Assembly (NCBI RefSeq): GCF_900111275.1
Contig: NZ_FOGR01000004.1
Location: 434,001-498,000, forward strand
Origin: Rhizobium sp. NFR03
Lineage (GTDB): Bacteria > Pseudomonadota > Alphaproteobacteria > Rhizobiales > Rhizobiaceae
Direction of reading: 5' to 3'
DNA length: 64,000 nucleotides
The first letter of the stretch is position 1, and each line of letters starts with the position of its first letter. Of this stretch, positions 10,430 through 24,214 are shown in pieces. The position numbers and the translations under genes were made by a program. The notes under the pieces are model-generated. The model saw nothing but the letters and a program-made list of their open reading frames with translations, was not told where the DNA came from and made no database searches.

Positions 10430-11026
10430 TTACTTCGGGCTCGCCAACGCGATGGTGCGCTGGAGGGCGGCGTCGAAGCCCTTGAGCGAAATGGAAAACG
10501 GCACCTCGGCCTCGGGATCGCTCGCCTGCGCCTTGACGATCAGCTTCGTGCCGGAACGAAGGGACTGCGTGATGGCGTCGGTAAAGAGCAGCGACACGAC
10601 GCATCCGACCGGCAAGCAGGTGCGGAACGGCGCCGGCTTTCCGGCCGGCAGGTCATCGACGGCAAAGGTCGCACCCTTTTGCAGGGCGAGACCGAAGGGA
10701 AGGATGAGATTGCCGCGGAGACGGCCGTCTTCGGCCGGGCGCAGTTCCATCAGCAGGACGCGCTGGCCGTTGCCATTCGCCTGGGTCTGGGACAGCGAGC
10801 ATTCCCGCGCGCCCGCGCCAGGCTTGCCCTTGGCCGCCTCACTGGCCTTATCCGCTGCTGCACCCTGCGTGGCGCAGCGCACGGTCCAGTCATCATAGCT
10901 TTCCGTCAGCGCGGAGGGCTGTGCGGGTGCCGGCGTCTGGGTCTGGGTCTGGGCCTGGGCCGAAACGCCCGTCACGGCGGCGCATGCCAGCGCCGCCGTG
11001 AGAGACAGATGAGGGAGACGCCGCAT
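10430..11026 (-). CDS. Invasion-associated locus B (IalB) family protein
   Basis: 198 residues. A signal peptide (cut near VSAQA) is followed by a Gln/Thr/Pro linker and the IalB-type domain: YDDWTVRC near the start, QRVLLMELRP, GNLILPFGLAL, and the paired cysteines in FRTCLPVGCVVSLLF. IalB is a periplasmic/outer-membrane-associated protein first described in Bartonella and widespread in Rhizobiales; its biochemical role is unclear. Its ATG shares a base with the autotransporter stop (TGATG), so the two are translationally coupled. Confidence 0.88.
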   Translation of the reverse strand: MRRLPHLSLTAALACAAVTGVSAQAQTQTQTPAPAQPSALTESYDDWTVRCATQGAAADKASEAAKGKPGAGARECSLSQTQANGNGQRVLLMELRPAEDGRLRGNLILPFGLALQKGATFAVDDLPAGKPAPFRTCLPVGCVVSLLFTDAITQSLRSGTKLIVKAQASDPEAEVPFSISLKGFDAALQRTIALASPK

Positions 11027-14000
11027 CAGAAGCGCACGCGCAGCTTCGCATCGACGCCGTTGGCCATGCCGTCATCGCCGAACTCGCCATTGTAGGAGAC
11101 GCCGAGCGTGGTCGTCTGCGAGAGGTTCACATCCAGTCCGACCTGCACGATGAAGGCATCCTGCGACACCGGCGCACCCCTTACGGCGTAGCTGTCGCTG
11201 CCGGCAAAGGCGAGACGCGAGGCTGGATCGGTATCGCCGAAGGCATGCCGCCAGCCGAGCGTACCGCTGGCAACCGTGGGAAGACCACCGAGCGTGAGGT
11301 CCGACGAGGCACGCAGACCAAGCGTCGTGAACGTCGTGTTGGTCGTGTCGCCCTCCCCGCGGAGTGCTGCGGAACCGCCCTTTTCGCGGAAGCCGTCCGT
11401 GTCCAGATTGACGTGCGCCACATTCACGAAGGGCTCGAAGGCTGCGAATTCCGTCTGGATCTCGTAGCCGAGTTCCCCATAGACCTGGAAGGAGCCGGCA
11501 TCATAGTCGGCCTTCAGATCCTGCGAGACGCCGGGGAAATCCACCGACCGCTTGGTGGAGATCTGGTGGTTGGTGTAGGAGAGGCCCGAACGCAGGGACA
11601 GCGCGCCCAGCTGTGTGCCGCCGTAGAGGCCGATGGTGTAGTTGTCGCTATCGGCAGAGGACGAACGGCTGTCGACGTCGATGCTGGTGCGGCTGTAGCC
11701 GAGGAAGACGCCAAGCCGCGAGACCGGCCCGACCAACGTGTCGATACCCGTGACGAGACCACCGGTCGAGACATCTGCTTCCGCCACACCGTTGCCGGCG
11801 TCGATATTGCTCCAGGAACCGAACGCCTGGCCCCAGACAGACCATGCGGGATCCACGACCTTCGGCGTGACGGCCGACATGGGATCGTCCGTCCAGCGGC
11901 CATTGTCCCAATAGTTGTTGACGGGCACGGGCTTGGCCGCAACGTCGCCCGAAGCCGCACGTAGCCGGTCGTTCGTCGCATCCCGCGTCTGGCTGGCGCC
12001 GGTGATCAGGCCGGATTTGACCGAGCCATGCGCCTCGCCCGACAGCCTGTCGAAGGCGCCCCGTGCCTCGTCCGCACTCAGAAGCAGGAGGCTGTTGTAG
12101 AGCGCGAGCGATTCCCCGCTCTGCTCGAGCGTGTTCAGCGACCGTGCCACGGCAACCTGGTTGCGCGTATCGGCAACACTGTCGAACAAGCCGGTTTCCG
12201 GCGGCTCTGGATTCGTCGGTGGTGTCGGCGGTGGCTCCGGGTTGGTGGGAGGCGTCGGCGGGGGCTCCGGGTTGGTGGGAGGCGTCGGCGGCGGCTCCGG
12301 GTTGGTGGGAGGCGTCGGAGGTTCCGGGTTCGTCGGGGGCGGTGTGGTGGGAGGCTCGGGGTTAGGCTGCCCGTTACCCGGATCCTTGACGGAGATCCGC
12401 AGGTCCACATCCTTTGCAGTCTGGTCGAGCGCAACGTCGAGGAAGGCGGATTTCGAGACGACCTGCGCGAATGTGCCGGTGATGCCGCCCTGTGCCGTCA
12501 GGATCTTATAGGTCTGGCCCGTCTGGTAGCTGGTCGCCGCGTCCAGCGCGGTCACCTGAACCGAGCTGTCCTTGCCGATCGTCGCGCGGCCGAGGCCATC
12601 GACAGCAATGGGTTTGCCGGCTGCATCGTAGCCGGCATTCTGCTTGACGGTTTCCACCGAGATGCGGTCGCTCGCGCCGTTGCCGGCGACATCGACGTCG
12701 TAGATCGCACCCTCAGCGAGATCGAGATCTCCGCGCACGGTGATGGTGCCCAGCGGATTGCCCGTGTCGCCGGGCGAGATGGTGGCGCCGCGATCGATAA
12801 AGGTGCTGCCGATCGTGCCGAAGCCGGCGAGCTTTCCATAGGCTCCCGTCACATTGCGCTGGCCGTTCAGCGTATCGCCCCAGACATCGACGGCGCTCGT
12901 ATAGGTCTCGCTGCCGAGGAAGTTCGTGACGACCTGACCCGTCTGGCCGCCGATGACCAGCGTACCGTTCTTCACGTCGAAATTCGTTCGGTTGGGGGAA
13001 ACGGTATCGTCGTCGGCCAGCGCCGTGCCGAGGTCGCCCTTCAGCACAAGCCGGCTGTTTCCGTCCACGATGACGCCACCGGCATAGCTATCGAGGGAGG
13101 CGAAGCCCGTCAGGTCGCCGGAGAGGATCGTCTCGCCGGACAGGCTGACGATCGACCCGTCGCCGACGATCTTGTTGGAGAAGTCATAGCCCGTATTCGT
13201 GTGGTTGAAGACGAGACGACCGGAGCCGGAGGTGCCGAAATTCACCACCGTTCCCGCGCTGACCGTGCCGGCAGCTTGCGTGTCGAGCGCGCGCGGAAGG
13301 CCCTGAAGGGCATCCGTGTCGATCTGCCCGCCAATGACGAGATAGCCGTCACTGCCGATATTGATCCCGTTCGCGGCATTCAGGTTACCGCCATTGGCAA
13401 CGACGACATGGCTGTCTGTCTCCACGCTTATCGCATTCGTTGCCGTGAAGGAGGAACCGGCGCCCGTGACCGTCAGATTGCCGACATCGTCGAGATCCGC
13501 GATCGATGTGCTCATCGCGCCGCCATTCTCGATCGTCAGATTGCCGCTGAGGTCGAGCCGGCCCGAATTGATCCAGCTGGAGCCCGCGCCCGTGACGATC
13601 GCGCCGCCCTCGGCCGTCGTCGTCGTGAATTGTCCGATCGAGGCCTGGTTCGTCAGGATCGCACCGCCCTGCTCGACCTTGACGAGGCTCGGCGTCGTGA
13701 GCATACCCTGCATGCCGAGATAATTCGCCGAGACGACGGATCCCGCGCCGGTGACCAGCAGTTTGCCCTGCGCGCCCTGTCCCTCGCCGACATAGATGTT
13801 TTTGGCATCCACCTTGCCGCCGCCTTCGACGATCAGCGTGCCGTCGCCGCCGGTGATGCACATGACGGAATAGCCGTTGCAGCCGCCGCCGATGCTCAGG
13901 CTGTTGCCGAGCACATAAGGCGTGCGTACCACATTCAGTTCGGAGCCGGGCCCGGAGACCGTGACGGTTGCCTGCGATCCGCCGAGGCCCGCGATGATGC

Positions 14001-14277
14001 CGCGATTGGCGATCAGCACGTTCGCACCGCTGTTGATGGTCAGCGTGGTGCCCTTGTTCTCAAGCCCGATGATCATGTCATCGGCAAAGCTCTGGTCGGT
14101 GCTCCAGACCACATTGCCGCTGTCCTGGATGTAATCCTTGTCGTCCAGTGCGAGCGCCGGGCCGGCCAGAAGCGAGGCGGAGACCGGCAGCAGCAGGAGG
14201 GAACGGCGGGTGACGGTCAATGCCGTCGAACTGCGCAAGCCACGATTCCGGTTTCGCAATTGCTCTTGTCGTCCCAT
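11026..14277 (-). CDS. Type V autotransporter with proline-rich hinge
   Basis: About 1083 residues. A long basic N-region plus signal (RRSLLLLPVSASLLAGPALA) leads into a passenger of glycine/asparagine-rich beta-helix-like repeats (GGDGTLIVEGGGKV, VTGAGSVVSANYLG). Then comes a hinge of NPEPPPTPPT repeats (about residues 635-690) and a C-terminal beta-barrel of about 270 residues beginning near WSVWGQAFGSW and ending in aromatic-terminated RVRF, as autotransporters do. GGAG lies 9 nt before the ATG at 14277; in-frame ATG 14286 and GTG 14292 are also possible. A surface adhesin or secreted factor is likely. It is co-translated with the IalB-like protein downstream. Confidence 0.92.
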   Translation of the reverse strand: MGRQEQLRNRNRGLRSSTALTVTRRSLLLLPVSASLLAGPALALDDKDYIQDSGNVVWSTDQSFADDMIIGLENKGTTLTINSGANVLIANRGIIAGLGGSQATVTVSGPGSELNVVRTPYVLGNSLSIGGGCNGYSVMCITGGDGTLIVEGGGKVDAKNIYVGEGQGAQGKLLVTGAGSVVSANYLGMQGMLTTPSLVKVEQGGAILTNQASIGQFTTTTAEGGAIVTGAGSSWINSGRLDLSGNLTIENGGAMSTSIADLDDVGNLTVTGAGSSFTATNAISVETDSHVVVANGGNLNAANGINIGSDGYLVIGGQIDTDALQGLPRALDTQAAGTVSAGTVVNFGTSGSGRLVFNHTNTGYDFSNKIVGDGSIVSLSGETILSGDLTGFASLDSYAGGVIVDGNSRLVLKGDLGTALADDDTVSPNRTNFDVKNGTLVIGGQTGQVVTNFLGSETYTSAVDVWGDTLNGQRNVTGAYGKLAGFGTIGSTFIDRGATISPGDTGNPLGTITVRGDLDLAEGAIYDVDVAGNGASDRISVETVKQNAGYDAAGKPIAVDGLGRATIGKDSSVQVTALDAATSYQTGQTYKILTAQGGITGTFAQVVSKSAFLDVALDQTAKDVDLRISVKDPGNGQPNPEPPTTPPPTNPEPPTPPTNPEPPPTPPTNPEPPPTPPTNPEPPPTPPTNPEPPETGLFDSVADTRNQVAVARSLNTLEQSGESLALYNSLLLLSADEARGAFDRLSGEAHGSVKSGLITGASQTRDATNDRLRAASGDVAAKPVPVNNYWDNGRWTDDPMSAVTPKVVDPAWSVWGQAFGSWSNIDAGNGVAEADVSTGGLVTGIDTLVGPVSRLGVFLGYSRTSIDVDSRSSSADSDNYTIGLYGGTQLGALSLRSGLSYTNHQISTKRSVDFPGVSQDLKADYDAGSFQVYGELGYEIQTEFAAFEPFVNVAHVNLDTDGFREKGGSAALRGEGDTTNTTFTTLGLRASSDLTLGGLPTVASGTLGWRHAFGDTDPASRLAFAGSDSYAVRGAPVSQDAFIVQVGLDVNLSQTTTLGVSYNGEFGDDGMANGVDAKLRVRF
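12202..12365. repeat. 30-bp tandem repeats encoding the autotransporter proline hinge
   Basis: Units of 30 bp (for example 12241-12270 and 12271-12300, differing by one base) with diverged flanking units encode about five copies of the decapeptide NPEPPPTPPT on the minus strand. Such in-frame arrays commonly vary in copy number. They are part of the coding sequence, not a CRISPR: there are no unique spacers. Confidence 0.9.
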
Positions 14278-14498
14278 GCTTTCCATCTCCACTGCTCAGG
14301 CAGACCCTCTGAAAATTCGGGTGAATTTCAGTAAGGTCGAGACAGCGGATAAAACACAGTCGAACCGGCGCGGCCATTAGCACGCATGTGCTAGTCTCAG
14401 GAGGCGACGCCCGGTATTTTGCACGTTTGCCGCGAAAAGAGCATTGCGGCAGACCCCGCCGTGAAGCATCCGACGCGTTCGCGTGAACGCGTGGCACG

Positions 14499-15398
14499 TC
14501 AGTCCAGCGATGCCATGTAGGCTGGCAGCTGCTCCTCGAAAAACTTGGAGAAGGAGGCAATGCGCGGGGGCAGCGTCTGGTAGGGCGGATAGAACAGGGT
14601 CAGCCAGAGATCCGGCGGCGCCCAGCCCCTGAAGACCTGAACGAGGCGGCCTGTGCGGATATGTTCTGCAATATGAAAGCCAGGAAGCATGGCCACACCG
14701 GCGCCATCCGCTGCCATGCTGGCCAGGACCTCGCCACTGTTGGCGCTGAAATCGCGACCGGCCGAGATCGTCATGCTGGAACCGCCATCCGAAAGAACCC
14801 AGTTTTCCCGCCGGCTTTCACCACTATAGGCGAGGCAATCATCCGGTTTCAGCTCGTTCGGGTGCTCCATGGCCACGAAGCGGCTGCCGGGAGCGGCCAC
14901 GAGAATGCGCGGCACCACCCTTATCTTTCTCCAGATCGTGAACTTGTCCGATGGCTGCGCGGAGATGCGGATCGCCAGATCGTAGTCGTCATCGACAATG
15001 TTCACCAGACCATCCGACAGCGAGATCTCGAAGCTCATCTTCGGAAACCTCTCCTTGAAACCCGAAAGGATCGGCGGCAAAACGGCCTTGCCGAACCAGG
15101 TCGGCGCGCTGATGCGCAGGCGTCCCTGATCGGCCTTGTGCGCGTTCATGACGTCGCGCCGTGCCGCCTCCAGCGTCTTCACCGCCGGCTGGATCTGCGC
15201 GGCAAAGATCGCGCCGTCCGTCGTCAGCGAGACCTGCCGCGTGGTGCGCACGAAGAGCTGTACGCCCAGTTCCGCCTCCAGCGCCGCGATCGCCCGTGTC
15301 ACGGCGGCAGGCGTCATGTCGAGTTCGCGCGCCACCTGAGCGAAGTTCCGCTTCTCGGCCGCCAGCAGAAAGGTGCGCAGAGCCTTATAGTCGTTCAT
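14499..15398 (-). CDS. LysR-family regulator of the dioxygenase/hydrolase island
   Basis: 299 residues. The winged helix occupies about residues 1-60 (NFAQVARELDMTPAAVTRAIAALEAELGVQLFVRTTRQVSLT), followed by the effector-binding domain. It is divergent from the ring-cleaving dioxygenase gene. The 111-bp gap contains GCAATTCAAT-N10-ATTGCAATTC (15417-15446), and the same element recurs before the isochorismatase gene at 16559-16588, so both units are likely controlled by this protein. The inducer is probably an aromatic or quinone compound, inferred from the neighbours. Confidence 0.9.
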   Translation of the reverse strand: MNDYKALRTFLLAAEKRNFAQVARELDMTPAAVTRAIAALEAELGVQLFVRTTRQVSLTTDGAIFAAQIQPAVKTLEAARRDVMNAHKADQGRLRISAPTWFGKAVLPPILSGFKERFPKMSFEISLSDGLVNIVDDDYDLAIRISAQPSDKFTIWRKIRVVPRILVAAPGSRFVAMEHPNELKPDDCLAYSGESRRENWVLSDGGSSMTISAGRDFSANSGEVLASMAADGAGVAMLPGFHIAEHIRTGRLVQVFRGWAPPDLWLTLFYPPYQTLPPRIASFSKFFEEQLPAYMASLD

Positions 15399-15416
15399 GT
15401 CACTGTTTCACTTTCA

Positions 15417-15446
15417 GCAATTCAATAGCAAGAAATATTGCAATTC
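15417..15446. promoter_or_regulatory. Probable LysR operator, copy 1
   Basis: GCAATTCAAT, ten variable bases, then ATTGCAATTC. It contains the inverted pair GCAAT/ATTGC 15 bp apart. It sits 19 bp from the lysR start and 64 bp before the dioxygenase ATG, the normal place for a LysR site. The two 10-base arms and their spacing are repeated exactly at 16559-16588. An ACTGTTTCA box lies at 15402-15410. Confidence 0.7.
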
Positions 15447-15509
15447 CGTCCGGGGATCAATGGGCGTACTTACGGTCATCGTCAAGCAAAGCCGCAGAAA
15501 GGCACCGAC

Positions 15510-16442
15510 ATGATCAAGGACATCAAGGGACTGCATCACGTAACGTCGATGGCATCGGACGCGCGGCAGAACAACCATTTCTTCACGCAGACACTGGGCC
15601 TGCGGCGCGTCAAGCAGACTGTCAATTTCGACGATCCGAGCGTCTACCACCTCTATTACGGTGACGAGACCGGATCTGCCGGCACTGTCATGACCTACTT
15701 TCCCTTTCAGGACATGATGCTCGGCCGACCGGGCGTCGGGGAAGTCGGGGAGACGCAGTTCTCCGTACCGAAGGGCACGTTGAAATACTGGCAGGATCGC
15801 CTCCTCGCACAGGGCGTCGCAGGCCTGGAGCAGGACACCGTTTTCGGTGCCAACCGGCTGCGGTTCATGGGTCCGGATGGCGACGGTCTCGCTTTGATCG
15901 AGTCCGCTGACGACGCCCGTGCCCCCTGGCTCGGCGACGGCATCCCCGACGATGTCGCCATTCGCGGCTTTGCCGGCGCCCGCTTCAGCCTGCATGAAAC
16001 GGCTGCGACGGAAGAACTGCTCGGCTTCATGGGCTATCAGCGTGCCGGAAAGGAAGGCGATGTCACCCGCTTCATCATGCCGGACGGCAATGGTGCGGAT
16101 ACGATCGATCTTGCCGCCCTTCCGCAGACGCCGTTTGCCCGTCAGGGTGCCGGCTCGGTCCATCACATCGCCTTTGCGGTCGACAATCGCGAGAAGCAGC
16201 TGGAGGTGCGCAAGGCCCTGATGGACACGGGATATCAGGTGACGCCGGTCATCGACCGGGATTACTTCTGGGCGATCTACTTCCGCACGCCCGGCGGCGT
16301 TCTCTTCGAGGTCGCCACCAACGAGCCGGGCTTCAACCGCGACGAGGACACCGCCCATCTTGGCGAAGCTCTCAAGCTGCCCGGCCGCTACGAAGCCTTC
16401 CGCGATCAGATCGAGGCGAACCTCGTCCCCCTGGCTGCCTGA
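15510..16442 (+). CDS. Ring-cleaving dioxygenase (VOC family, MhqO/hydroquinone type)
   Basis: 310 residues made of two vicinal-oxygen-chelate modules: GLHHVTSMASDARQNNHFFTQTLGLR at the start and SVHHIAFAVDNREKQLEVRKAL in the second half, with GGVLFEVATNEPGF supplying the C-terminal metal-ligand Glu. The first His of GLHHVT, a His of SVHHIAF and this Glu are the expected Fe/Mn ligands. The length and two-module build match the YkcA/MhqO group that opens hydroquinone-type rings. AAAGG precedes the ATG. It is divergent from the LysR regulator and followed by a strong hairpin. Confidence 0.88.
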   Translation: MIKDIKGLHHVTSMASDARQNNHFFTQTLGLRRVKQTVNFDDPSVYHLYYGDETGSAGTVMTYFPFQDMMLGRPGVGEVGETQFSVPKGTLKYWQDRLLAQGVAGLEQDTVFGANRLRFMGPDGDGLALIESADDARAPWLGDGIPDDVAIRGFAGARFSLHETAATEELLGFMGYQRAGKEGDVTRFIMPDGNGADTIDLAALPQTPFARQGAGSVHHIAFAVDNREKQLEVRKALMDTGYQVTPVIDRDYFWAIYFRTPGGVLFEVATNEPGFNRDEDTAHLGEALKLPGRYEAFRDQIEANLVPLAA

Positions 16443-16470
16443 ACGATAGAATCCGACAAAACATTGACTT

Positions 16471-16507
16471 TGCATCGCCGCGACACCGAAAGGTTCGCGG
16501 CGATGCA
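16471..16507 (+). terminator. Strong hairpin after the dioxygenase gene
   Basis: A perfect 13-bp stem (TGCATCGCCGCGA / TCGCGGCGATGCA) with an 11-nt loop lies 28 nt after the dioxygenase stop. It lacks a T run, so it may terminate weakly or protect the 3' end of the mRNA. Confidence 0.6.
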
Positions 16508-16558
16508 CGTTTGCGGTCACCACTCTCACCGAATAGGACAGGGATAATTGCCGGAATC

Positions 16559-16588
16559 GCAATTCAATGAAAATATTTATTGCAATTC
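16559..16588. promoter_or_regulatory. Probable LysR operator, copy 2
   Basis: Second copy of GCAATTCAAT-N10-ATTGCAATTC, with a different spacer, directly followed by TGAAACAGT (inverse of the ACTGTTTCA box near copy 1). It lies 178 bp before the isochorismatase ATG in the 323-bp gap after the dioxygenase. The rest of that gap holds only the terminator hairpin at 16471-16507 and no gene that I can support. Confidence 0.68.
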
Positions 16589-16765
16589 TGAAACAGTAAG
16601 TTGTGGCGTAGATTTCATATCAGCAGCAAAGACGGCGTCTTCCTGCTCCTGCTGACGGCGAATGGGTCGCATGGAGGCGGAGGGGCATCAAGGACCGCCA
16701 ACCCGAACGATCGCTGCTGCCATCGTGAAACCCGCAAAAGCGGCGAAAACCTAGAGGAAAAGACC

Positions 16766-17455
16766 ATGTCCAAGTTCGAAGTCCTGACCCCGGCAAACAG
16801 CCAGCTCATCTTCATCGACCAGCAGCCGCAGATGGCGTTCGGCGTTCAGTCGATCGACCGCCAGACCTTGAAGAACAACGTCGTCGGCCTCGCCAAGGCG
16901 GCCAAGATCTTCGACATCCCCACGACCATCACGACCGTGGAAACCGAGAGCTTCTCGGGCAATACGTTTCCCGAACTTCTCGCCGTTCATCCCGAGAACG
17001 ACATCCTCGAGCGCACCTCGATGAATTCCTGGGACGACCAGAACGTTCGCGACGCGCTGGCGAAGAATGCGGCACAGGGCCGCAAGAAGATCGTCGTCTC
17101 CGGTCTCTGGACGGAAGTCTGCAACACGACCTTTGCGCTGTCTGCTCTTCATGACGTGCCGGAATACGAGATCTACATGGTTGCCGATGCGTCCGGCGGC
17201 ACCTCGCTCGAAGCGCATAATCGCGCCATGGACCGTATGATTCAGGCCGGCATCATCCCCGTCACCTGGCAGCAGGTCCTCTTGGAATGGCAGCGCGACT
17301 GGGCTCGCAAGGAAACCTATGACGCCGTCACCACGCTGGTGAAGGAGCATTCTGGCGCCTACGGCATGGGTATCGACTACGCCTACACCATGGTTCACGG
17401 CGCTGAAGAGCGCGTGAAGCACGGCAAGCGCATCGGCCCGAACCCGGCCAAGTAA
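16766..17455 (+). CDS. Isochorismatase-family cysteine hydrolase (YcaC-like)
   Basis: 229 residues. The fold is recognisable from LIFIDQQPQMAFGV (catalytic Asp), a central Lys region (GRKKIVVSGLWTEVC) and the nucleophile Cys119 in TEVCNTTFAL. The family cleaves amides or ester-like bonds (nicotinamidase, isochorismatase); this branch resembles YcaC, whose substrate is unknown. AGAGGA lies before the ATG. It starts the isochorismatase-XapX-amidohydrolase unit, with a 12-bp hairpin between it and XapX that could make it the most expressed gene of the three. Confidence 0.88.
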   Translation: MSKFEVLTPANSQLIFIDQQPQMAFGVQSIDRQTLKNNVVGLAKAAKIFDIPTTITTVETESFSGNTFPELLAVHPENDILERTSMNSWDDQNVRDALAKNAAQGRKKIVVSGLWTEVCNTTFALSALHDVPEYEIYMVADASGGTSLEAHNRAMDRMIQAGIIPVTWQQVLLEWQRDWARKETYDAVTTLVKEHSGAYGMGIDYAYTMVHGAEERVKHGKRIGPNPAK

Positions 17456-17467
17456 GAGTAAGCCAGC

Positions 17468-17495
17468 ACCGCTCCGGCACGCCTGCCGGAGCGGT
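17468..17495 (+). terminator. Intercistronic hairpin after the isochorismatase gene
   Basis: A perfect 12-bp stem (ACCGCTCCGGCA / TGCCGGAGCGGT) around a 4-nt loop, 13 nt after the stop and 27 nt before the XapX ATG. There is no T run. It probably acts as a partial terminator or mRNA-stabilising element inside the operon. Confidence 0.55.
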
Positions 17496-17521
17496 CGTAC
17501 CGCAATCGTGGAGCACATCCC

Positions 17522-17809
17522 ATGAAAGTCTATCTCCTGTCCCTTGGTGCCGGGCTGCTTGTCGGCATCGTCTATAGCCTGCTCAACGTCCGCTCGCCGG
17601 CACCGCCCGTCATCGCCCTCGTCGGCCTCCTGGGTATTCTCGTCGGCGAGCAGGTCATTCCGCTTGCAAAGTCGCTCTGGACACGCGAGCCGGCGGCTGT
17701 TTCCTGGCTGCATCAGATCAAGCCGCACGTGTTCGGTCACCTGCCGAAGGGCGGTAGCCACAGTGAGGTTGCCGGCCACCCGGCATCGCCTCGTGAGGAG
17801 CGTATCTGA
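17522..17809 (+). CDS. XapX (DUF1427) small membrane protein
   Basis: 95 residues. Two hydrophobic helices separated by a short Pro-containing turn (GAGLLVGIVYSLLNVRSPAPPVIALVGLLGILVGEQVIPLAK) match the XapX domain; the remaining about 45 residues are a soluble tail. XapX proteins are named after a gene of a xanthosine uptake cluster, but the role is unknown. They commonly lie beside isochorismatase-type hydrolases and YtcJ-type amidohydrolases, as here. Its TGA overlaps the next ATG by one base. Confidence 0.87.
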   Translation: MKVYLLSLGAGLLVGIVYSLLNVRSPAPPVIALVGLLGILVGEQVIPLAKSLWTREPAAVSWLHQIKPHVFGHLPKGGSHSEVAGHPASPREERI

Positions 17810-19791
17810 TGGCCACGCGTCGAAACTTTCTGGGCGGAGCGTCGAGCCTGGCGCTCTCCAACCTCTTTTCCCCGGCGAAAGCCGCCGATACCAACCAGAC
17901 AGGAGGAACTAGCATGCATCCAGACCTCATTCTCCATAGTGGCCGCGTCACCACGCTCGACCGCGCCAACCCCAACGCCACGGCCATCGCCATCAAGGAC
18001 GGGCTGTTTCTGGAGGTCGGTTCCGACAGCGAGATCATGGCGCTGGCCGGGCCTGACACGAAGATTGTCGATCTCAAGGGCAAGCGCGTGCTTCCCGGCT
18101 TGATCGACAACCACACCCACGTCATCCGCGGCGGCCTGAACTACAATATGGAACTTCGCTGGGACGGCGTGCGCTCGCTGGCCGACGCAATGGACATGCT
18201 GAAGCGTCAGGTGGCGATCACGCCCGCGCCGCAATGGGTGCGCGTGGTCGGCGGCTTTACCGAACACCAGTTCGCGGAAAAACGTCTGCCGACGATCGAG
18301 GAGATCAATGCGATCGCCCCGGATACGCCGGTCTTCCTGCTCCACCTCTATGATCGTGCACTCCTCAACGGCGCCGCCCTGCGCGCCGTCGGGTATACCA
18401 GGGATACCCCGAACCCGCCCGGCGGCGAGATCACCCGGGATACCAATGGTAACCCGACGGGCATGCTGCTCGCCAAGCCCAATGCCGGCATTCTCTACTC
18501 GACGCTTGCCAAGGGGCCGAAGCTGCCGCTCGACTACCAGGTCAACTCGACCCGCCACTTCATGCGCGAGCTGAACCGGCTGGGCGTGACCGGCGTCATC
18601 GATGCGGGCGGCGGCTTCCAGAACTACCCGGATGATTACGCCGTCATTCAGAAGCTGTCGGATGAAGGTCAGATGACCGTGCGGCTGGCCTACAACCTCT
18701 TCACCCAGAAGCCGAAGGAGGAAAAGCAGGACTTCCTGGACTGGACGTCGAGCGTCAAATACAAGCAGGGCAACGACTATTTCCGTCACAATGGCGCCGG
18801 CGAGATGCTCGTTTTCTCGGCTGCCGACTTCGAGGACTTTCGCCAGCCGCGCCCGGAAATGGCGCCGGAAATGGAAGGCGAGCTGGAAGAGGTCGTCCGG
18901 GTTCTGGCCGAAAACCGCTGGCCGTGGCGCATGCATGCGACCTATGACGAGACCATCTCCCGCTCGCTCGATGTGTTCGAGAAGGTCAACAAGGATATTC
19001 CGCTCGAAGGCCTCAACTGGTTCTTCGACCATGCCGAGACGATTTCCGACCGCTCCATCGACCGGATCGCGGCGCTCGGAGGTGGCATCGCCACCCAGCA
19101 TCGGATGGCCTATCAGGGCGAGTATTTCGTCGAACGGTATGGTCATGGCGTCGCGGAAGCCACGCCGCCGATCGCCAGAATGCTGGAAAAGGGCGTCAAC
19201 GTCTCCGCCGGCACGGATGCGACCCGTGTCGCGTCCTATAACCCCTGGGTCTCGCTCTCCTGGATGGTCACGGGCAAGACGGTCGGCGGCATGCAGCTCT
19301 ATCCCCGGGCCAATTGCCTCGATCGCGAAACCGCGCTGCGCATGTGGACCGAAAAGGTCACATGGTTCTCCAACGAGGAAGGCAAGAAGGGCCGCATCGA
19401 AAAGGGCCAGTTCGCCGATCTCGTCGTGCCGGACAAGGACTTCTTCTCATGTGCGGAAGACGAGATCTCGTTCCTGACCTCGCAACTGACCATGGTCGGC
19501 GGCAAGGTCGTCTATGGTGCCGGTGACTTCAAGGCGCTGGACGAGAACGACGTACCACCGGCCATGCCGGACTGGTCGCCGGTGCGCACCTTCGGCGGCT
19601 ACGCGGCCTGGGGCGAGCCGGAGGGTGCGGGCGCCCGCTCGCTCCGCCGCACCGCCATCAGCACCTGCGGCTGCGCCAGCGATTGCGGCGTCCACGGGCA
19701 CGACCACGCCGGGGCCTGGACATCGAAACTGCCCATCTCGGATCTGAAAGGCTTCTTCGGAGCGCTTGGCTGCTCCTGCTGGGCCGTCTGA
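17809..19791 (+). CDS. YtcJ-like metal-dependent amidohydrolase, Tat-exported, with Cys/His-rich tail
   Basis: 660 residues. It has an N-terminal twin-arginine signal (TRRNFLGG, then a hydrophobic stretch ending AKAAD). The amidohydrolase_3 core has the HxH metal site at His102/His104 (LPGLIDNHTHV), further His in WRMHATYDE and FDHAET, and a catalytic-type Asp in AGTDATR. After the core a tail of about 40 residues contains CGCASDCGVHGHDH and CSCW near the very end, resembling a small metal-binding element and not usual for the family. Export suggests periplasmic action on an amide or carbamate-like compound. The substrate is unknown. Confidence 0.87.
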   Translation: MATRRNFLGGASSLALSNLFSPAKAADTNQTGGTSMHPDLILHSGRVTTLDRANPNATAIAIKDGLFLEVGSDSEIMALAGPDTKIVDLKGKRVLPGLIDNHTHVIRGGLNYNMELRWDGVRSLADAMDMLKRQVAITPAPQWVRVVGGFTEHQFAEKRLPTIEEINAIAPDTPVFLLHLYDRALLNGAALRAVGYTRDTPNPPGGEITRDTNGNPTGMLLAKPNAGILYSTLAKGPKLPLDYQVNSTRHFMRELNRLGVTGVIDAGGGFQNYPDDYAVIQKLSDEGQMTVRLAYNLFTQKPKEEKQDFLDWTSSVKYKQGNDYFRHNGAGEMLVFSAADFEDFRQPRPEMAPEMEGELEEVVRVLAENRWPWRMHATYDETISRSLDVFEKVNKDIPLEGLNWFFDHAETISDRSIDRIAALGGGIATQHRMAYQGEYFVERYGHGVAEATPPIARMLEKGVNVSAGTDATRVASYNPWVSLSWMVTGKTVGGMQLYPRANCLDRETALRMWTEKVTWFSNEEGKKGRIEKGQFADLVVPDKDFFSCAEDEISFLTSQLTMVGGKVVYGAGDFKALDENDVPPAMPDWSPVRTFGGYAAWGEPEGAGARSLRRTAISTCGCASDCGVHGHDHAGAWTSKLPISDLKGFFGALGCSCWAV

Positions 19792-19801
19792 TCGCAAACA
19801 A

Positions 19802-19826
19802 GGACGGGCGGCATTGCCGCCCGTCC
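19802..19826. terminator. Bidirectional hairpin between amidohydrolase and higA
   Basis: A perfect 11-bp stem (GGACGGGCGGC / GCCGCCCGTCC) with an ATT loop, 10 nt after the amidohydrolase stop and between convergent genes. No T run on either side. Confidence 0.6.
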
Positions 19827-19851
19827 GACGGACGCGGAGATATTGTCGTCG

Positions 19852-20160
19852 CTATGCCGCTTTGGTCAGAGGCTTGGCACGATCCACGCGCGCCCGCTGG
19901 TCGGGCGAGTTCATGACGTTCCACAGGTCGCTGCGCCGCTGCGTGTTCAGCCAGAAGTCCGGGCTGTTGCCGAATACGCGCGCCAGAATGAGCGCGGTCG
20001 CCGCCGTTACGTTGCGCCGGTCGTTGCAAAGTTCGTTCACATGCTTGCGCTGCACGCCCATCGCCTCGGCCAGCGCCGCCTGCGTCAGGCCGAGCGGCTG
20101 CATAAATTCTTCTGTCAGGATTTCACCGACCGTGGCAGGCTTGCGTGTGGTCATCAACAT
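19852..20160 (-). CDS. higA: HigA-family antitoxin
   Basis: 102 residues. The helix-turn-helix reads GLTQAALAEAMGVQRKHVNELCNDRRNVTAATALILARVFGNSPDFWLNTQ, the signature of the HigA/VapI addiction-module antidote family, which binds the HigB mRNA interferase and represses its own operon. The usual toxin gene directly upstream is not intact: only a remnant resembling the HigB C-terminus is seen ending 9 nt before this ATG. The gene therefore appears to be an orphan antitoxin, possibly kept as a regulator. Confidence 0.9.
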   Translation of the reverse strand: MLMTTRKPATVGEILTEEFMQPLGLTQAALAEAMGVQRKHVNELCNDRRNVTAATALILARVFGNSPDFWLNTQRRSDLWNVMNSPDQRARVDRAKPLTKAA

Positions 20161-20169
20161 GGCATCACC

Positions 20170-20289
20170 TTACCGATAGCTGTGGTCGTCGAGATGGATA
20201 TCCGACGCTTCGCCGCGACCGCCGTTCCTCGGGAACACCAGCCGCGACGGATTGTACAACTGTTTTCCGCCACGCCAAGCACTCTGAGA
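20170..20289 (-). pseudogene. higB: Probable higB toxin remnant
   Basis: The open stretch ends in a stop 9 nt before higA, exactly where a higB gene should end. Its last residues (SRLVFPRNG, then ASDIHLDDHSYR) can be aligned with the HigB C-terminal pattern RxxFxW...VEIVDYH. An in-frame TAG lies upstream at 20290-20292, and no HigB N-terminal half was found, so the toxin would be dead. The resemblance is short; this is an inference from position plus pattern. Confidence 0.42.
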
Positions 20290-20313
20290 CTATTTCATAA
20301 ACCGAAACAATAT

Positions 20314-20335
20314 CACAATTATTCCTTCAATTGTG
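20314..20335. promoter_or_regulatory. Inverted repeat upstream of the doxX operon
   Basis: CACAATT-N8-AATTGTG, 74 bp before the DoxX ATG. The arms are perfect. It resembles an operator; its AATTGTG half shares ATTG/CAAT sequence with the LysR element at 15.4 and 16.6 kb. Which protein binds is unknown. Confidence 0.45.
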
Positions 20336-20409
20336 CATCACGGTGTAACCGCGCACTATCGCTCCATCAACTGCAGCCGATCCACCCGGCCAACCTCAAG
20401 GAGCAGGAC

Positions 20410-20862
20410 ATGACCCTTTCATCGAACGACCCTATACGCGGCCGTCTCTCGCGTCTGATCGGATCTCCCGTCACGCGGACCGTCTCTCTTCTCGCGCTCT
20501 GCGCGGCCTATATTCAGGGGCCGATCACCAAGATCCTCGACTTCGATGGCGCGCTGGCTGAGATGAACCATTTCGGGCTTCAGCCCGCAGCCTTCTTCGC
20601 CACGGCCGTCATCGTCTTTGAACTTACGGCCTCGGCCATGGTCGTCTCCGGCGTTCTGCGCTGGGCCGGTGCGCTTTCGCTTGCCGCCTTCACGCTTCTT
20701 GCAACCTTCATCGCGCTGCGTTTCTGGGAACTGGCGCCCGGCATGGACCGCATGATGGCGACCAATGCCTTCTTCGAACATCTCGGCCTCGCAGGCGCCT
20801 TCGTCCTCGTCGCTGCCACCGACCTCAACAGAATGGACCTCAACAAGGGAGCACGCACATGA
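20410..20862 (+). CDS. DoxX-family integral membrane protein
   Basis: 150 residues with four hydrophobic helices and the DoxX pattern (FFATAVIVFELTASAMVVSGVLRWAGALSLAAFTLLATFIALRFW). DoxX-like proteins are inner-membrane proteins linked to quinone/thiol redox homeostasis; MhqP of the Bacillus hydroquinone-response regulon is one. AAGGAG lies 8 nt before the ATG. The stop overlaps the MFS gene start (ATGA), so they are co-translated. Confidence 0.87.
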   Translation: MTLSSNDPIRGRLSRLIGSPVTRTVSLLALCAAYIQGPITKILDFDGALAEMNHFGLQPAAFFATAVIVFELTASAMVVSGVLRWAGALSLAAFTLLATFIALRFWELAPGMDRMMATNAFFEHLGLAGAFVLVAATDLNRMDLNKGART

Positions 20863-22457
20863 CCGCCGCAAAATCGACCGGGGGCAGCTTCGCGCCTCTC
20901 GCACAGCCCGTCTTCGCGGTCCTCTGGATCGCCACGGTCCTTGGAAACACCGGCAGCTTCATGCGCGATGTCGCCAGCTCCTGGCTGATGACGGACCTCT
21001 CGGCATCGCCGGCCGCCGTCGCCATGGTGCAGGCGGCGGGAACCCTGCCCATCTTCCTGCTCGCCATTCCCGCAGGCGTGCTCACCGATATCCTCGACCG
21101 TCGCAAATTCCTGATCGCGGTCCAGCTGCTGCTCGCATCCGTCAGCATCTCGCTGATGATCCTTTCGCAGATGGGCATGCTCTCCGTCAGCGCGCTGATC
21201 GGCCTCACCTTTCTCGGCGGCATCGGTGCGGCTCTCATGGGACCGACATGGCAGGCCATCGTGCCTGAACTGGTGAAGCGCGAGGATGTGAAAAGTGCCG
21301 TGGCGCTCAACTCGCTCGGCATCAACATCGCCCGGTCCATCGGCCCTGCCGCCGGCGGCCTTCTTCTCGCGGCCTTCGGTGCTGGTATCACCTATGGCGC
21401 GGATGTCGCCAGCTATGTCTTCGTCATCGCCGCCCTCGTCTGGTGGCCCCGCGCCAAGAAGGGGAACGACGCGTTGCAGGAGAACTTCTTCGGCGCATTT
21501 CGGGCCGGACTTCGCTACACCAGGTCGAGCCGGCCTCTCCATGTCGTGCTGATCCGCGCAGCCGTGTTCTTCGCCTTCGCCAGTGCCGTCTGGGCCCTTC
21601 TGCCGCTGGTCGCCCGCCAGCTTCTGGGTGGTGATGCGAGCTTCTACGGCATCCTGCTCGGCGCGGTCGGCGCCGGCGCCATCGGCGGAGCGCTGGTCAT
21701 GCCGAAGCTGCGCGAACGCCTGAGTTCCGACGGTCTTCTCCTGACCTCTGCGCTTACCACCGCGGCTGTCATGGGCATCCTGTCGCTGGCCCCTCCCAAA
21801 GCGATTGCCATCCTCTCCCTGCTCTTCCTTGGCGCCGCATGGATCACGGCCCTGACCACGCTGAACGGTGCGGCACAGGCCGTGCTTCCCAACTGGGTTC
21901 GCGGTCGCGGGCTTGCGGTCTACCTCACCGTGTTCAACGGCGCGATGACGGCGGGCAGCCTTGGCTGGGGCGCCGTCGGCGAGGCCGTCGGCATCCGCTC
22001 GACGCTGGTCATCGGCGCGGCAGGCCTTCTCGTCGCGGGTTTCCTCATGCACCGGGTCAAGCTGCCGGCGGGCGATGCCGACATGGTGCCCTCCAACCAT
22101 TGGCCGGAACCCCTCGTTGCCGAACCTGTCGCCCATGATCGCGGCCCGGTCCTCATCCTCATCGAATATACCGTCGAGAAAGAGAACCACCGCGCCTTCC
22201 TGCATGCCATCGACGGCCTGTCCCAGGAGCGTCGCCGGGATGGTGCCTATGGCTGGGGCATCACCGAGGACTCGGCCGATCCGGAGAAGATCGTGGAATG
22301 GTTCATGGTCGAATCCTGGGCGGAACATCTGCGGCAGCACAAGCGGGTTTCCAACGCCGACGCCGACCTGCAAGGCAAGGTTCTCGCCTACCATCGCGGC
22401 CCGGAAAAGCCGGTCGTCCGTCACTTCCTGACGATCAACCGTCCCGGCGCTGCTTGA
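20859..22457 (+). CDS. MFS exporter (MFS_3 type) with C-terminal soluble extension
   Basis: 532 residues. Residues 1 to about 410 form a 12-helix transporter of the enterobactin-exporter/DUF894 group ([30 protein letters not shown] at the start). The last about 110 residues are soluble and have the look of an antibiotic-biosynthesis-monooxygenase-like ferredoxin fold ([64 protein letters not shown]). Such fused carriers recur in Rhizobiales. It overlaps DoxX by 4 bp. The substrate may be an aromatic or quinone-like compound, judged only from the neighbours. Confidence 0.87.
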
Positions 22458-22618
22458 AGGCGGTGAGCGAGAACGACGGGAGGCGTAACGAACGCCTCCC
22501 GATCATTGCGAAAACGGCAACGAACTCGACAGTGTTGCGGCAATTGTGTGAGCCAGCGCTTTCCGACAAAATCGCTTCATCAGACAAAGCCCAACCCACA
22601 TCACAGGAAACCAGCACC

Positions 22619-23455
22619 ATGAGCACCATCACCACACAGGACGGCGTCGAGATCTTCTTCAAGGATTGGGGAAGCAAGGACGCGCAGCCGATCGTTTTCC
22701 ACCATGGCTGGCCGCTGTCATCCGACGACTGGGATGCGCAGATGCTGTTCTTCGTCTCCAAGGGCTACCGCGTCGTTGCCCATGACCGGCGCGGCCACGG
22801 ACGTTCCGCACAGGTCGCGGATGGCCACGACATGGATCATTACGCCGCCGACGCCTTTGCCGTCGTGGAACACCTCGACTTGAAGAACGCGGTTCATATC
22901 GGCCACTCGACAGGCGGCGGCGAAGTTGCGCGCTACGTCGCCAGACACGGCCAGCCGGCCGGGCGTGTCGCCAAGGCCGTCCTCGTCTCGGCCGTGCCGC
23001 CGCTGATGCTGAAGACGGAAGGCAACCCGGACGGGCTGCCGATGGATGTATTCGACGGCTTCCGTTCGGCGCTGGCCGCCAACCGTGCCCAGTTCTTCCG
23101 CGATGTCCCGGCAGGCCCGTTCTACGGCTTCAATCGTGACGGCGCAACGGTTCATGAAGGCGTCATCCAGAATTGGTGGCGTCAAGGCATGATGGGCGGC
23201 GCGAAGGCCCATTATGATGGCATCAAGGCCTTCTCCGAAACCGACCAGACCGAAGACCTCAAGGCCATCACGGTTCCCACGCTGGTGCTGCACGGCGAGG
23301 ACGACCAGATCGTTCCGATCGGCGCCTCCGCCCGCAAATCCGTGAAGTTGCTCGCGAACGGCACGTTGAAGACCTATCCCGGCTTCTCGCACGGCATGCT
23401 CACCGTCAATGCCGACGTACTCAACGCCGACCTGCTGGCCTTCGTGCAAGCCTGA
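22619..23455 (+). CDS. Alpha/beta hydrolase, non-heme chloroperoxidase/arylesterase type
   Basis: 278 residues, the normal size. The oxyanion segment is [12 protein letters not shown], the nucleophile elbow GHSTGGG (Ser near residue 99), the acid in [10 protein letters not shown] and the His in GFSHGM near the end. The overall sequence matches the non-heme chloroperoxidase/aryl esterase group, which hydrolyses esters and shows perhydrolase side activity. AGGA precedes the ATG. CAATTGTG at 22541-22548 in the leader shares bases with the island's operators. A hairpin terminator follows. Confidence 0.9.
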
Positions 23456-23521: not shown

Positions 23522-24214
23522 ATGACCCGCAACGCCACAGCCCTGAAGCTTACCCCGGAGCTCGTCGCAAAGACGTTGCGGGTGGTCGAGGATCAGGGAC
23601 CGGAGCCGAACCAGACGCCGATCTCGCCGGCGCAACTGGACGCCCTCGTTTCCCGCATCGAGGCGGAAGCGGACGGCGACATTTGGGTCTTCGCCTATGG
23701 CTCCCTGATGTGGAACCCGGGCTTTACGGTCTCGGAGAGCGAGCCTGCCTTAGCTTACGGATGGCACCGGGCCTTCTCGTTGCGCATCGAGCGCCTGCGG
23801 GCGACGTCGGCGGCACCGGGCCTGATGCTCGCGTTAAGACAGGGCGGAAGCTGCGCCGGCCGCATTCTGAAGCTGCCATCCGAGACGCAGCGGGCAGATC
23901 TCCGCACGCTTCTCGCCCGCGAAATTCGCTATGCCGAAGTCTCCGACATGGTGCGCTGGGTCCCCGTCAGGACGTCGTCCGGTACGCGCAGGGTTCTCAC
24001 CTTCTGGGCCAGTGCGCGGCAGTGTCCCCTGACGGAAAGCATCCGCCTCGAAGAAGCCGCCGTGCTCATCGCCCAGGCCTGCGGCCCCGCCGGATCCTGC
24101 GCGGAATACCTGCACCGCACAGTCTGCGACTTGGCAAAACGCAACATTCTCGACCGCAATCTCTGGCGCCTTCAGGAAATGGTCGCCGCAAGACTGACCG
24201 CTCTTCCGGCGTGA
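23522..24214 (+). CDS. Gamma-glutamylcyclotransferase, ChaC family
   Basis: 230 residues. The glycine-rich substrate loop FAYGSLMWNPGF, the GWHRAFSL motif and GRILKLP are characteristic of ChaC-type enzymes, which cleave glutathione to 5-oxoproline and Cys-Gly in the cytosol. A catalytic Glu is expected in the LAREIRYAEVSD segment. The gene follows the hydrolase with a hairpin between them. A glutathione-turnover enzyme fits a detoxification setting, but co-regulation is not proven. Confidence 0.88.
   Translation: MTRNATALKLTPELVAKTLRVVEDQGPEPNQTPISPAQLDALVSRIEAEADGDIWVFAYGSLMWNPGFTVSESEPALAYGWHRAFSLRIERLRATSAAPGLMLALRQGGSCAGRILKLPSETQRADLRTLLAREIRYAEVSDMVRWVPVRTSSGTRRVLTFWASARQCPLTESIRLEEAAVLIAQACGPAGSCAEYLHRTVCDLAKRNILDRNLWRLQEMVAARLTALPA

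What the first reader, a model, noticed from the sequence alone, without database searches (positions are those of the whole stretch)
14499..23455. A LysR island with the same long operator in front of two operons, resembling a quinone-detoxification system
GCAATTCAAT-N10-ATTGCAATTC occurs at 15417-15446 and 16559-16588 with different spacers, before the dioxygenase and before the isochorismatase-XapX-amidohydrolase unit. Further downstream come DoxX, an MFS carrier with an extra domain, an esterase-type hydrolase and a glutathione-cleaving enzyme. Ring-cleaving dioxygenase, DoxX and hydrolase are the three activities of the Bacillus MhqR (hydroquinone) regulon, here with unrelated regulation and two extra exported or membrane parts (XapX, Tat amidohydrolase). 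The functional reading is inference; the repeated operator is directly visible.
Basis: partly seen in the sequence, partly recalled or inferred. Interest (0 to 1): 0.75.

Follow-up and report, generated by a model that had tools for sequence, protein, structure and literature searches.

The report
LysR regulon with four repeated operators
A bacterium carries an island of probable detoxification genes in which one switch protein appears to control four gene groups through the same kind of DNA tag; the tag is conserved in relatives, but the compound the island deals with is not known.

Summary
The repeated 30-mer is real: exactly two copies in the window and in the whole 5.4 Mb genome. A matrix trained on relatives puts four sites on top in 64 kb: 15417, 16559, and two weaker ones at 20304 (before DoxX-MFS) and 22517 (before hydrolase-ChaC). 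Each ends exactly 20 bp before a -10-like hexamer. In 247 family genomes the operator-plus-promoter pattern occurs 41 times in 15 genomes, with 0 reversed-control matches. The LysR orthologue is in 14 genomes; 13 are among those 15 and the 14th has diverged operators. In 79 loci, 44 of 44 LysR genes at 77% identity or more have the site 17-20 bp from their start codon. So this is a LysR regulon, probably an activator with autoregulation (inferred). The dioxygenase is MhqO/PcpA-like, but the hydrolase is chloroperoxidase/esterase-type, not MhqD-like, and an MhqE-D look-alike pair lies elsewhere in the genome. In relatives outside the family the constant part is isochorismatase, XapX and amidohydrolase. 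A quinone role is plausible, unproven.

The parts
14499..15398 (-). LysR-type regulator, probable regulator of the island
   Evidence: PF00126, PF03466; orthologue co-occurs with operators
15417..15446 (+). operator 1 (dioxygenase; also 18 bp from the LysR start codon)
   Evidence: 47.7 bits; exact match
15467..15472 (+). -10-like hexamer TACTTA of the dioxygenase promoter
   Evidence: begins 21 bp after operator end
15510..16442 (+). MhqO/PcpA-family ring-cleaving dioxygenase
   Evidence: 3oaj E 1.5e-72, 4huz E 5.8e-42
16559..16588 (+). operator 2 (isochorismatase unit)
   Evidence: 45.2 bits; exact match
16609..16614 (+). -10-like hexamer TAGATT
   Evidence: begins 21 bp after operator end
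16766..17455 (+). YcaC-like isochorismatase-family hydrolase
   Evidence: PF00857; 1yac E 1.8e-25
17522..17809 (+). XapX/DUF1427 small protein
   Evidence: PF07235 E 2e-39, TIGR03510
17809..19791 (+). Amidohydro_3 enzyme with Tat-like leader
   Evidence: PF07969 E 3e-131; leader read by eye
20304..20333 (+). operator 3, degenerate (DoxX-MFS)
   Evidence: 26.4 bits
20354..20359 (+). -10-like hexamer CACTAT
   Evidence: begins 21 bp after operator end
20410..20862 (+). DoxX-family membrane protein
   Evidence: PF07681 52.6 bits
20859..22457 (+). MFS_3 exporter
   Evidence: PF05977 E 4e-240
22517..22546 (+). operator 4, degenerate (hydrolase)
   Evidence: 18.6 bits; conserved in place in same-genus loci
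22567..22572 (+). -10-like hexamer CAAAAT
   Evidence: begins 21 bp after operator end
22619..23455 (+). chloroperoxidase/arylesterase-type alpha/beta hydrolase (ABH)
   Evidence: 1zoi E 2e-133, 1a88 E 2e-131
23522..24214 (+). ChaC-like protein, probably co-transcribed with ABH here
   Evidence: PF04752; no site of its own (best 9 mismatches)

Best explanation
The island is one regulon. The LysR protein recognises a 30-bp operator made of two same-direction GCAATT half-sites 23 bp apart. The operator ends 20 bp before the -10 hexamer of each target promoter, so it would cover about -62 to -33, where LysR-type activators classically bind. On an inducer LysR most likely activates four units: the MhqO/PcpA-type ring-cleaving dioxygenase; isochorismatase-XapX-amidohydrolase; DoxX-MFS exporter; and the chloroperoxidase/esterase-type hydrolase, with ChaC probably carried along. 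Because operator 1 lies 18 bp from LysR's own start codon, LysR probably also restrains itself. The gene set suggests detoxification or breakdown of a phenolic, quinone-like or ester/amide-bearing aromatic compound. Shown by sequence: operators, spacing, conservation, link to LysR. Inferred: binding, activation, autoregulation, inducer, substrate. My separate estimates: shared regulon 0.93, activation 0.75, (hydro)quinone-like substrate 0.4.
For: Four top matrix hits in 64 kb at the four units (47.7, 45.2, 26.4, 18.6 bits; best hit away from these places -0.7). Same spacing to -10 in window and relatives. 41 composite matches in 15 of 247 genomes, 0 reversed controls; 40 of the 41 precede genes of one small set. 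LysR in 14 of 247 genomes, 13 of them among the 15; the 14th, G004, has sites of 40.3, 17.0 and 14.4 bits. 44 of 44 LysR genes at 77% or more have the site 17-20 bp from the start codon. The hydrolase changes place between genomes and usually keeps an operator. General LTTR geometry: introduction passage of PMC5603801.
Against: No binding or expression data. Operators 3 and 4 of the window are degenerate (4 mismatches to the general pattern), are missed by the composite pattern at 3 mismatches and may be decaying. Operator 4 (18.6 bits) lies below the highest of 200 simulated windows (23.1; mean 3.1, sd 4.5), so position and orthology carry it, not the score. T6 and A18 of the T-N11-A motif are both present in only 28 of 36, 16 of 23, 19 of 24 and 11 of 30 distinct sites. 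In 4 of 79 loci operators occur with no LysR in the fetched stretch; G194 has an operator-ABH pair and no LysR orthologue at E <= 1e-130. L008's ABH has no clear site (9 mismatches).
Confidence: 0.8

Rival explanations
1. One reading: a quinone-detoxification system equivalent to the Bacillus MhqR regulon with another regulator. The inducer and substrate are (methyl)hydroquinones, and dioxygenase, DoxX and hydrolase do the work.
For: MhqO-family dioxygenase with aligned metal-ligand residues (ligand identity recalled); DoxX family; a pirin, a family I recall as quinone-linked, in the Pantoea cluster.
Against: Hydrolase is of another family; no Pfam nitro- or azoreductase among the 10 proteins scanned; dioxygenase match in only 3 of 28 outside-family loci and missing from some same-family islands (L078, L080, L207); a separate MhqE-D look-alike exists in the genome.
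Confidence: 0.3
2. Core-pathway reading: isochorismatase, XapX and amidohydrolase (with DoxX and MFS) break down and export an aromatic amide, imide or ester; the dioxygenase is an add-on that clears a released phenol.
For: In 28 outside-family loci found with the isochorismatase: amidohydrolase in 27, XapX in 23, DoxX in 20, MFS in 15; both enzymes belong to hydrolase families.
Against: No substrate evidence; the loci were selected by the isochorismatase; sequence matches to solved amidohydrolases are weak.
Confidence: 0.35
3. The repeats are bound by another transcription factor, or by LysR as a plain repressor.
For: No binding data; a few operators occur without a nearby LysR.
Against: Operator lies next to LysR in 44 of 44 loci and ends upstream of -35, not over -10 or +1, for the four targets; loci lacking LysR lack the operator in 28 of 32, though relatedness is not removed.
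Confidence: 0.12
4. The identical sites are recent promoter duplication or a mobile repeat without regulatory meaning.
For: Operators 1 and 2 are nearly identical in the window.
Against: Spacers and flanks differ; four site classes with their own consensus, conserved across genera with constant spacing; not dispersed elsewhere in the genome.
Confidence: 0.02

Closest known systems
LysR-type regulons of aromatic catabolism (PnpR/PnpM of Pseudomonas WBC-3)
   Same: One LTTR for several operons including hydroquinone ring cleavage and its own gene (passages of PMC5603801)
   Different: There the footprint holds GTT-N11-AAC at -80 to -64, and LTTR activation sites are said to have no conserved motif; here both half-sites are GCAATT in the same direction, 23 bp apart, at fixed distance from -10. 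Different gene set.
MhqR regulon of Bacillus subtilis and mhqRED of Staphylococcus aureus
   Same: MhqO-family dioxygenase, an alpha/beta hydrolase, in Bacillus one operator before several units (passages of PMC6798810); DoxX family (MhqP, recalled)
   Different: MhqR is a MarR-type repressor with a 9-9 bp inverted repeat at -6 to +12 in S. aureus; other hydrolase family; extra isochorismatase, XapX, amidohydrolase, MFS, ChaC
LinE/PcpA hydroquinone dioxygenases
   Same: Sequence family (4huz, E 5.8e-42)
   Different: No chlorinated-aromatic pathway enzyme recognised among the 10 island proteins scanned
Cofactor-free chloroperoxidases / arylesterases
   Same: ABH matches chloroperoxidase L and arylesterases over its whole length
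   Different: Natural substrate in this regulon unknown; some off-island copies have Tat-like leaders

Membership tests
LysR-type regulator with LTTR-type target promoters | LysR HTH and LysR substrate domains | tested here: met
   PF00126 and PF03466 above cut-off
LysR-type regulator with LTTR-type target promoters | Site lies upstream of and overlapping -35 of target promoters | tested here: met
   Site end 20 bp before a -10-like hexamer in all four window promoters and in the class consensus of relatives; transcription starts not mapped
LysR-type regulator with LTTR-type target promoters | T-N11-A dyad in the regulatory site | tested here: inconclusive
   T6 and A18 in 28/36, 16/23, 19/24, 11/30 distinct sites; full ATTC-N9-GAAT dyad in 8/36, 1/23, 0/24, 0/30
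LysR-type regulator with LTTR-type target promoters | Protein binds the site and activates on an inducer | not testable with these tools
   needs footprint, EMSA, RNA-seq
Mhq quinone-detoxification system | MhqA/E/O-type ring-cleaving dioxygenase | tested here: met
   3oaj MhqO, E 1.5e-72, residues 2-308
Mhq quinone-detoxification system | MhqD-type phospholipase/carboxylesterase (Abhydrolase_2, recalled) | tested here: not met
   Abhydrolase_2 15.6 bits, cut-off 23; nearest solved relatives chloroperoxidase/esterase
Mhq quinone-detoxification system | DoxX-family protein (MhqP, recalled) | tested here: met
   PF07681 52.6 bits; family level only, not compared with MhqP
Mhq quinone-detoxification system | MarR-type MhqR repressor | tested here: not met
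   the adjacent regulator is LysR
Mhq quinone-detoxification system | Induction by and tolerance of hydroquinones | not testable with these tools
   needs experiment

The most novel reading that the evidence does not exclude
The isochorismatase-XapX(DUF1427)-amidohydrolase-DoxX-MFS cluster is an undescribed, widely shared proteobacterial pathway that breaks down and exports a toxic plant-derived aromatic amide or ester. Rhizobiaceae wired it, with an MhqO-type dioxygenase and a mobile esterase, to one LysR through self-contained operator-gene cassettes that shuffle between positions and replicons. XapX would gain its first function.
Probability: 0.35. Interest if true: 0.65.

Novelty: new variant of a known kind. 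Interest (0 to 1): 0.5.

Why it matters
DUF1427 was singled out in 2005 as a domain of unknown function then known only in plant-associated Proteobacteria (abstract and passages of PMC554113); the loci found here extend beyond plant-associated genera by title, e.g. Psychrobacter and Nitrosovibrio. It now gains a conserved partner set and a defined regulon that can be tested in model symbionts (Sinorhizobium meliloti 1021 pSymA; Rhizobium 3841 pRL12). One lysR deletion tested with a panel of plant phenolics would show what the module is for. The operator, with two conserved same-direction half-sites at a fixed distance from -10, also gives a clean test of how a LysR-type protein reads its activation site.

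Tried and rejected
Rejected: (a) the repeat as chance; (b) a plain duplicated promoter; (c) the MFS C-terminal part as an unusual fusion, since the Pfam MFS_3 model covers it; (d) the same part as an ABM-type monooxygenase: hhalign against one Azotobacter ABM protein gave probability 0.1% and the profile had no credible PDB match (best E 0.61). (e) The palindrome CACAATT-N8-AATTGTG before DoxX, first taken for another regulator's site, overlaps operator 3 and was not pursued. (f) Salicylate responses of Rhizobium 3841: passages of PMC4136779 held no isochorismatase; the listed amidohydrolase and dioxygenase carry pRL1202xx tags, which I took to lie elsewhere without checking coordinates.

Literature: 'XapX' 13 papers, judged from the listing, mostly unrelated, one Citrobacter genome paper, none opened. 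'DUF1427' 1, passages seen. isochorismatase+DoxX+LysR 0. Tags and accessions of strain 3841: 1, not opened. MhqR+quinone+Sinorhizobium 3, not opened. At least 3 of XapX, LysR, isochorismatase, amidohydrolase: 4, none with XapX, not opened. Broader: 79 papers, 20 listed, PMC4136779 opened for passages, none opened; 14 papers, 10 listed, PMC5603801 and PMC3382589 opened for passages; 2, PMC6798810 opened for passages. I found no description of this regulon in these searches; only an open-access library without preprints was searched.

Led nowhere: structure prediction of the MFS C-terminal part, machine busy at all six tries, so no fold search was made.
Full report
OBSERVATION. The 30-mer is at both stated places, with 0.00 expected in shuffles, no third copy within 3 mismatches in the window, and only these two exact copies in the 5.4 Mb genome. 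Gene identities were checked with Pfam and NCBIfam.

MORE OPERATORS THAN REPORTED. In five plasmid-borne relatives the same operator (up to 3 mismatches) stands before the dioxygenase and the isochorismatase, and a variant like GCAATTAAATCGAAACTATTGCTGCAATTG before DoxX; the hydrolase (ABH) has a further variant. I aligned upstream regions in 20 relative loci plus the window. The DoxX site begins 101-124 bp before the start codon in 14 of 16 relatives with DoxX at 4-5 mismatches to the exact pattern; L080 has 7, L076 has none and its DoxX follows the amidohydrolase closely. The isochorismatase lacks its own site in L070, L071, L072, L076 and L077, where it follows the dioxygenase within about 150 bp. 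ABH of L008 has no clear site. L079 and L081 held none of the genes. Upstream regions of ChaC, amidohydrolase and MFS, used as controls, gave at best 7-10 mismatches.

A matrix built from 47 distinct relative sites, leaving out the window and the same-genus L080, gave as the four best sites in the window, both strands: 15417 (47.7 bits), 16559 (45.2), 20304 (26.4), 22517 (18.6); the best place not overlapping these scored -0.7. In 200 Markov-1 windows the maximum averaged 3.1 (sd 4.5, highest 23.1), so site 4 alone is within the extreme of chance. All four lie on + upstream of the four transcription units, and a -10-like hexamer begins exactly 21 bp after each. In the 79 genome-contig loci a conserved hexamer sits at the same offset in all four classes. 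In two same-genus genomes the DoxX and ABH sites are weak but in place (L080; L207, 17.0 and 14.4 bits).

GENOME-WIDE TESTS. In 247 genomes of the family the dioxygenase at 78% identity or more occurs in 12; each of the 12 has the operator (up to 3 mismatches) ending 63-73 bp upstream by coordinates. Among the listed copies at 71% or less I saw, by eye, none with such a site; the list was cut. At 3 mismatches the simple pattern also gives many chance hits: 61 of 247 genomes, against 8 reversed-control hits. The stricter composite (operator + 20 + -10) at 2 mismatches gave 41 matches in 15 of 247 genomes and 0 control matches. By gene assignments, 40 of the 41 precede dioxygenase, isochorismatase, DoxX, ABH, YoaK/DUF1275 or DUF1622 genes; one (G105:C16) is at a contig end and unresolved. 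At 3 mismatches in 14 chosen genomes there were 44 matches and 0 controls, one inside a coding frame and presumably chance (L125). The window's own operators 3 and 4 are not among either set. The LysR orthologue (E <= 1e-130) is in 14 of 247 genomes: 13 are among the 15 operator genomes; the 14th, G004, has sites of 40.3, 17.0 and 14.4 bits. The two operator genomes without it are G239, which has only a LysR fragment match (residues 46-132) beside the dioxygenase, and G194, which has an ABH gene with an operator alone.

79 NAMED LOCI (selected by the isochorismatase, best 80 of 576, so not a random sample; L134, L137 and L181 share contig lengths with training contigs). All 44 loci with LysR at 77% or more have an operator above 25 bits; of 32 without a LysR of 60% or more, 4 have one and 28 do not (Fisher p 7e-17; relatedness not removed). 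Of 142 operators, 135 were linked to dioxygenase (41), DoxX (36), ABH (31) or isochorismatase (27). Of the other 7, L133, L139 and L152 precede a YoaK/DUF1275-like frame and L206 lies beside LysR with a RidA-like frame after it (frames read by eye); L135, L137 and L151 were not inspected further. In 44 of 44 LysR genes the operator is 17-20 bp from the start codon. Three homologues at 62-66% (L184, L198, L201) have a candidate diverged site at 18-20 bp (26.8, -0.1 and 13.3 bits); the -0.1 case rests on position and eye alone. Gene order is shuffled, ABH above all, and ABH usually keeps an operator.

FUNCTION. The dioxygenase belongs to the MhqO/PcpA family, with His10, His219 and Glu267 aligned to the metal ligands (ligand identity recalled). 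The isochorismatase-like protein is YcaC-like, with Asp18 and Cys119 kept; I know of no established substrate for YcaC. ABH is a chloroperoxidase/arylesterase, not MhqD-like. The amidohydrolase leader is Tat-like by reading; in the listed non-Rhizobiaceae plasmid homologues of about 59-76% identity the match begins at query residue 32-41, so export is probably a rhizobial addition. In 28 loci named from genera outside the family (my sorting by title), amidohydrolase matches occur in 27, XapX in 23, DoxX in 20, MFS in 15, ABH in 3, the dioxygenase in 3 (1 at 60% or more) and LysR at 60% or more in 4. Related clusters are annotated in Pantoea, with a pirin, Burkholderia and partly in Acinetobacter plasmids, without this operator (the best matrix scores there were 12-13 bits). 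The dioxygenase paralogue at G000:C20 (64%) stands next to a DLH/Abhydrolase_2 hydrolase with no operator. The island is therefore a LysR regulon for a compound that may, but need not, be a hydroquinone.

MECHANISM. LTTRs commonly bind a regulatory site near -65 and an activation site near -35, the latter without a known conserved motif (introduction passage of PMC5603801; a 'sliding dimer' model is mentioned in a passage of PMC3382589). Here the operator would span about -62 to -33 and repeats GCAATT at both ends with a 23-bp period (autocorrelation 0.94 over 116 sites). I infer activation and, from the site beside the LysR start codon, autoregulation; neither was measured.

VERDICT. Observation confirmed and doubled; interpretation partly supported. 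The regulon is well supported by comparative sequence; its substrate is open.

Noticed in passing
19852-20160 (-) and about 20170-20238 (-): HigA-family antitoxin gene without an intact HigB partner; a short HigB-like 3' end, recognised by eye, remains beside it. HigA sits between the amidohydrolase and DoxX units in the window, L080 and L207 and was found in none of the 79 loci.
   Followed up: partly
G000:C20:334627-335544 (L082:8628-9554): Second dioxygenase, 64% identical, next to a DLH/Abhydrolase_2 hydrolase: an MhqE-D look-alike pair without the operator. Dioxygenases of this family match in 141 of 247 family genomes.
   Followed up: partly
L121:2466-3443 and L122:4435-5430: Off-island hydrolase (ABH) copies with their own operator and Tat-like leaders, unlike the window copy.
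   Followed up: partly
L206:13400-14700 (Xanthobacter tagetidis): An 80% LysR orthologue with the operator outside Rhizobiaceae, next to a RidA-like frame; possible horizontal transfer.
   Followed up: no
plasmid NZ_CP034167.1, 77071-78051 (Escherichia albertii): Partial amidohydrolase match, 86.5% identical over residues 162-488, unexpected in this host.
   Followed up: no
11026-14292 (-): 1088-aa autotransporter-like frame (by reading) with proline-rich repeats just left of the island.
   Followed up: no
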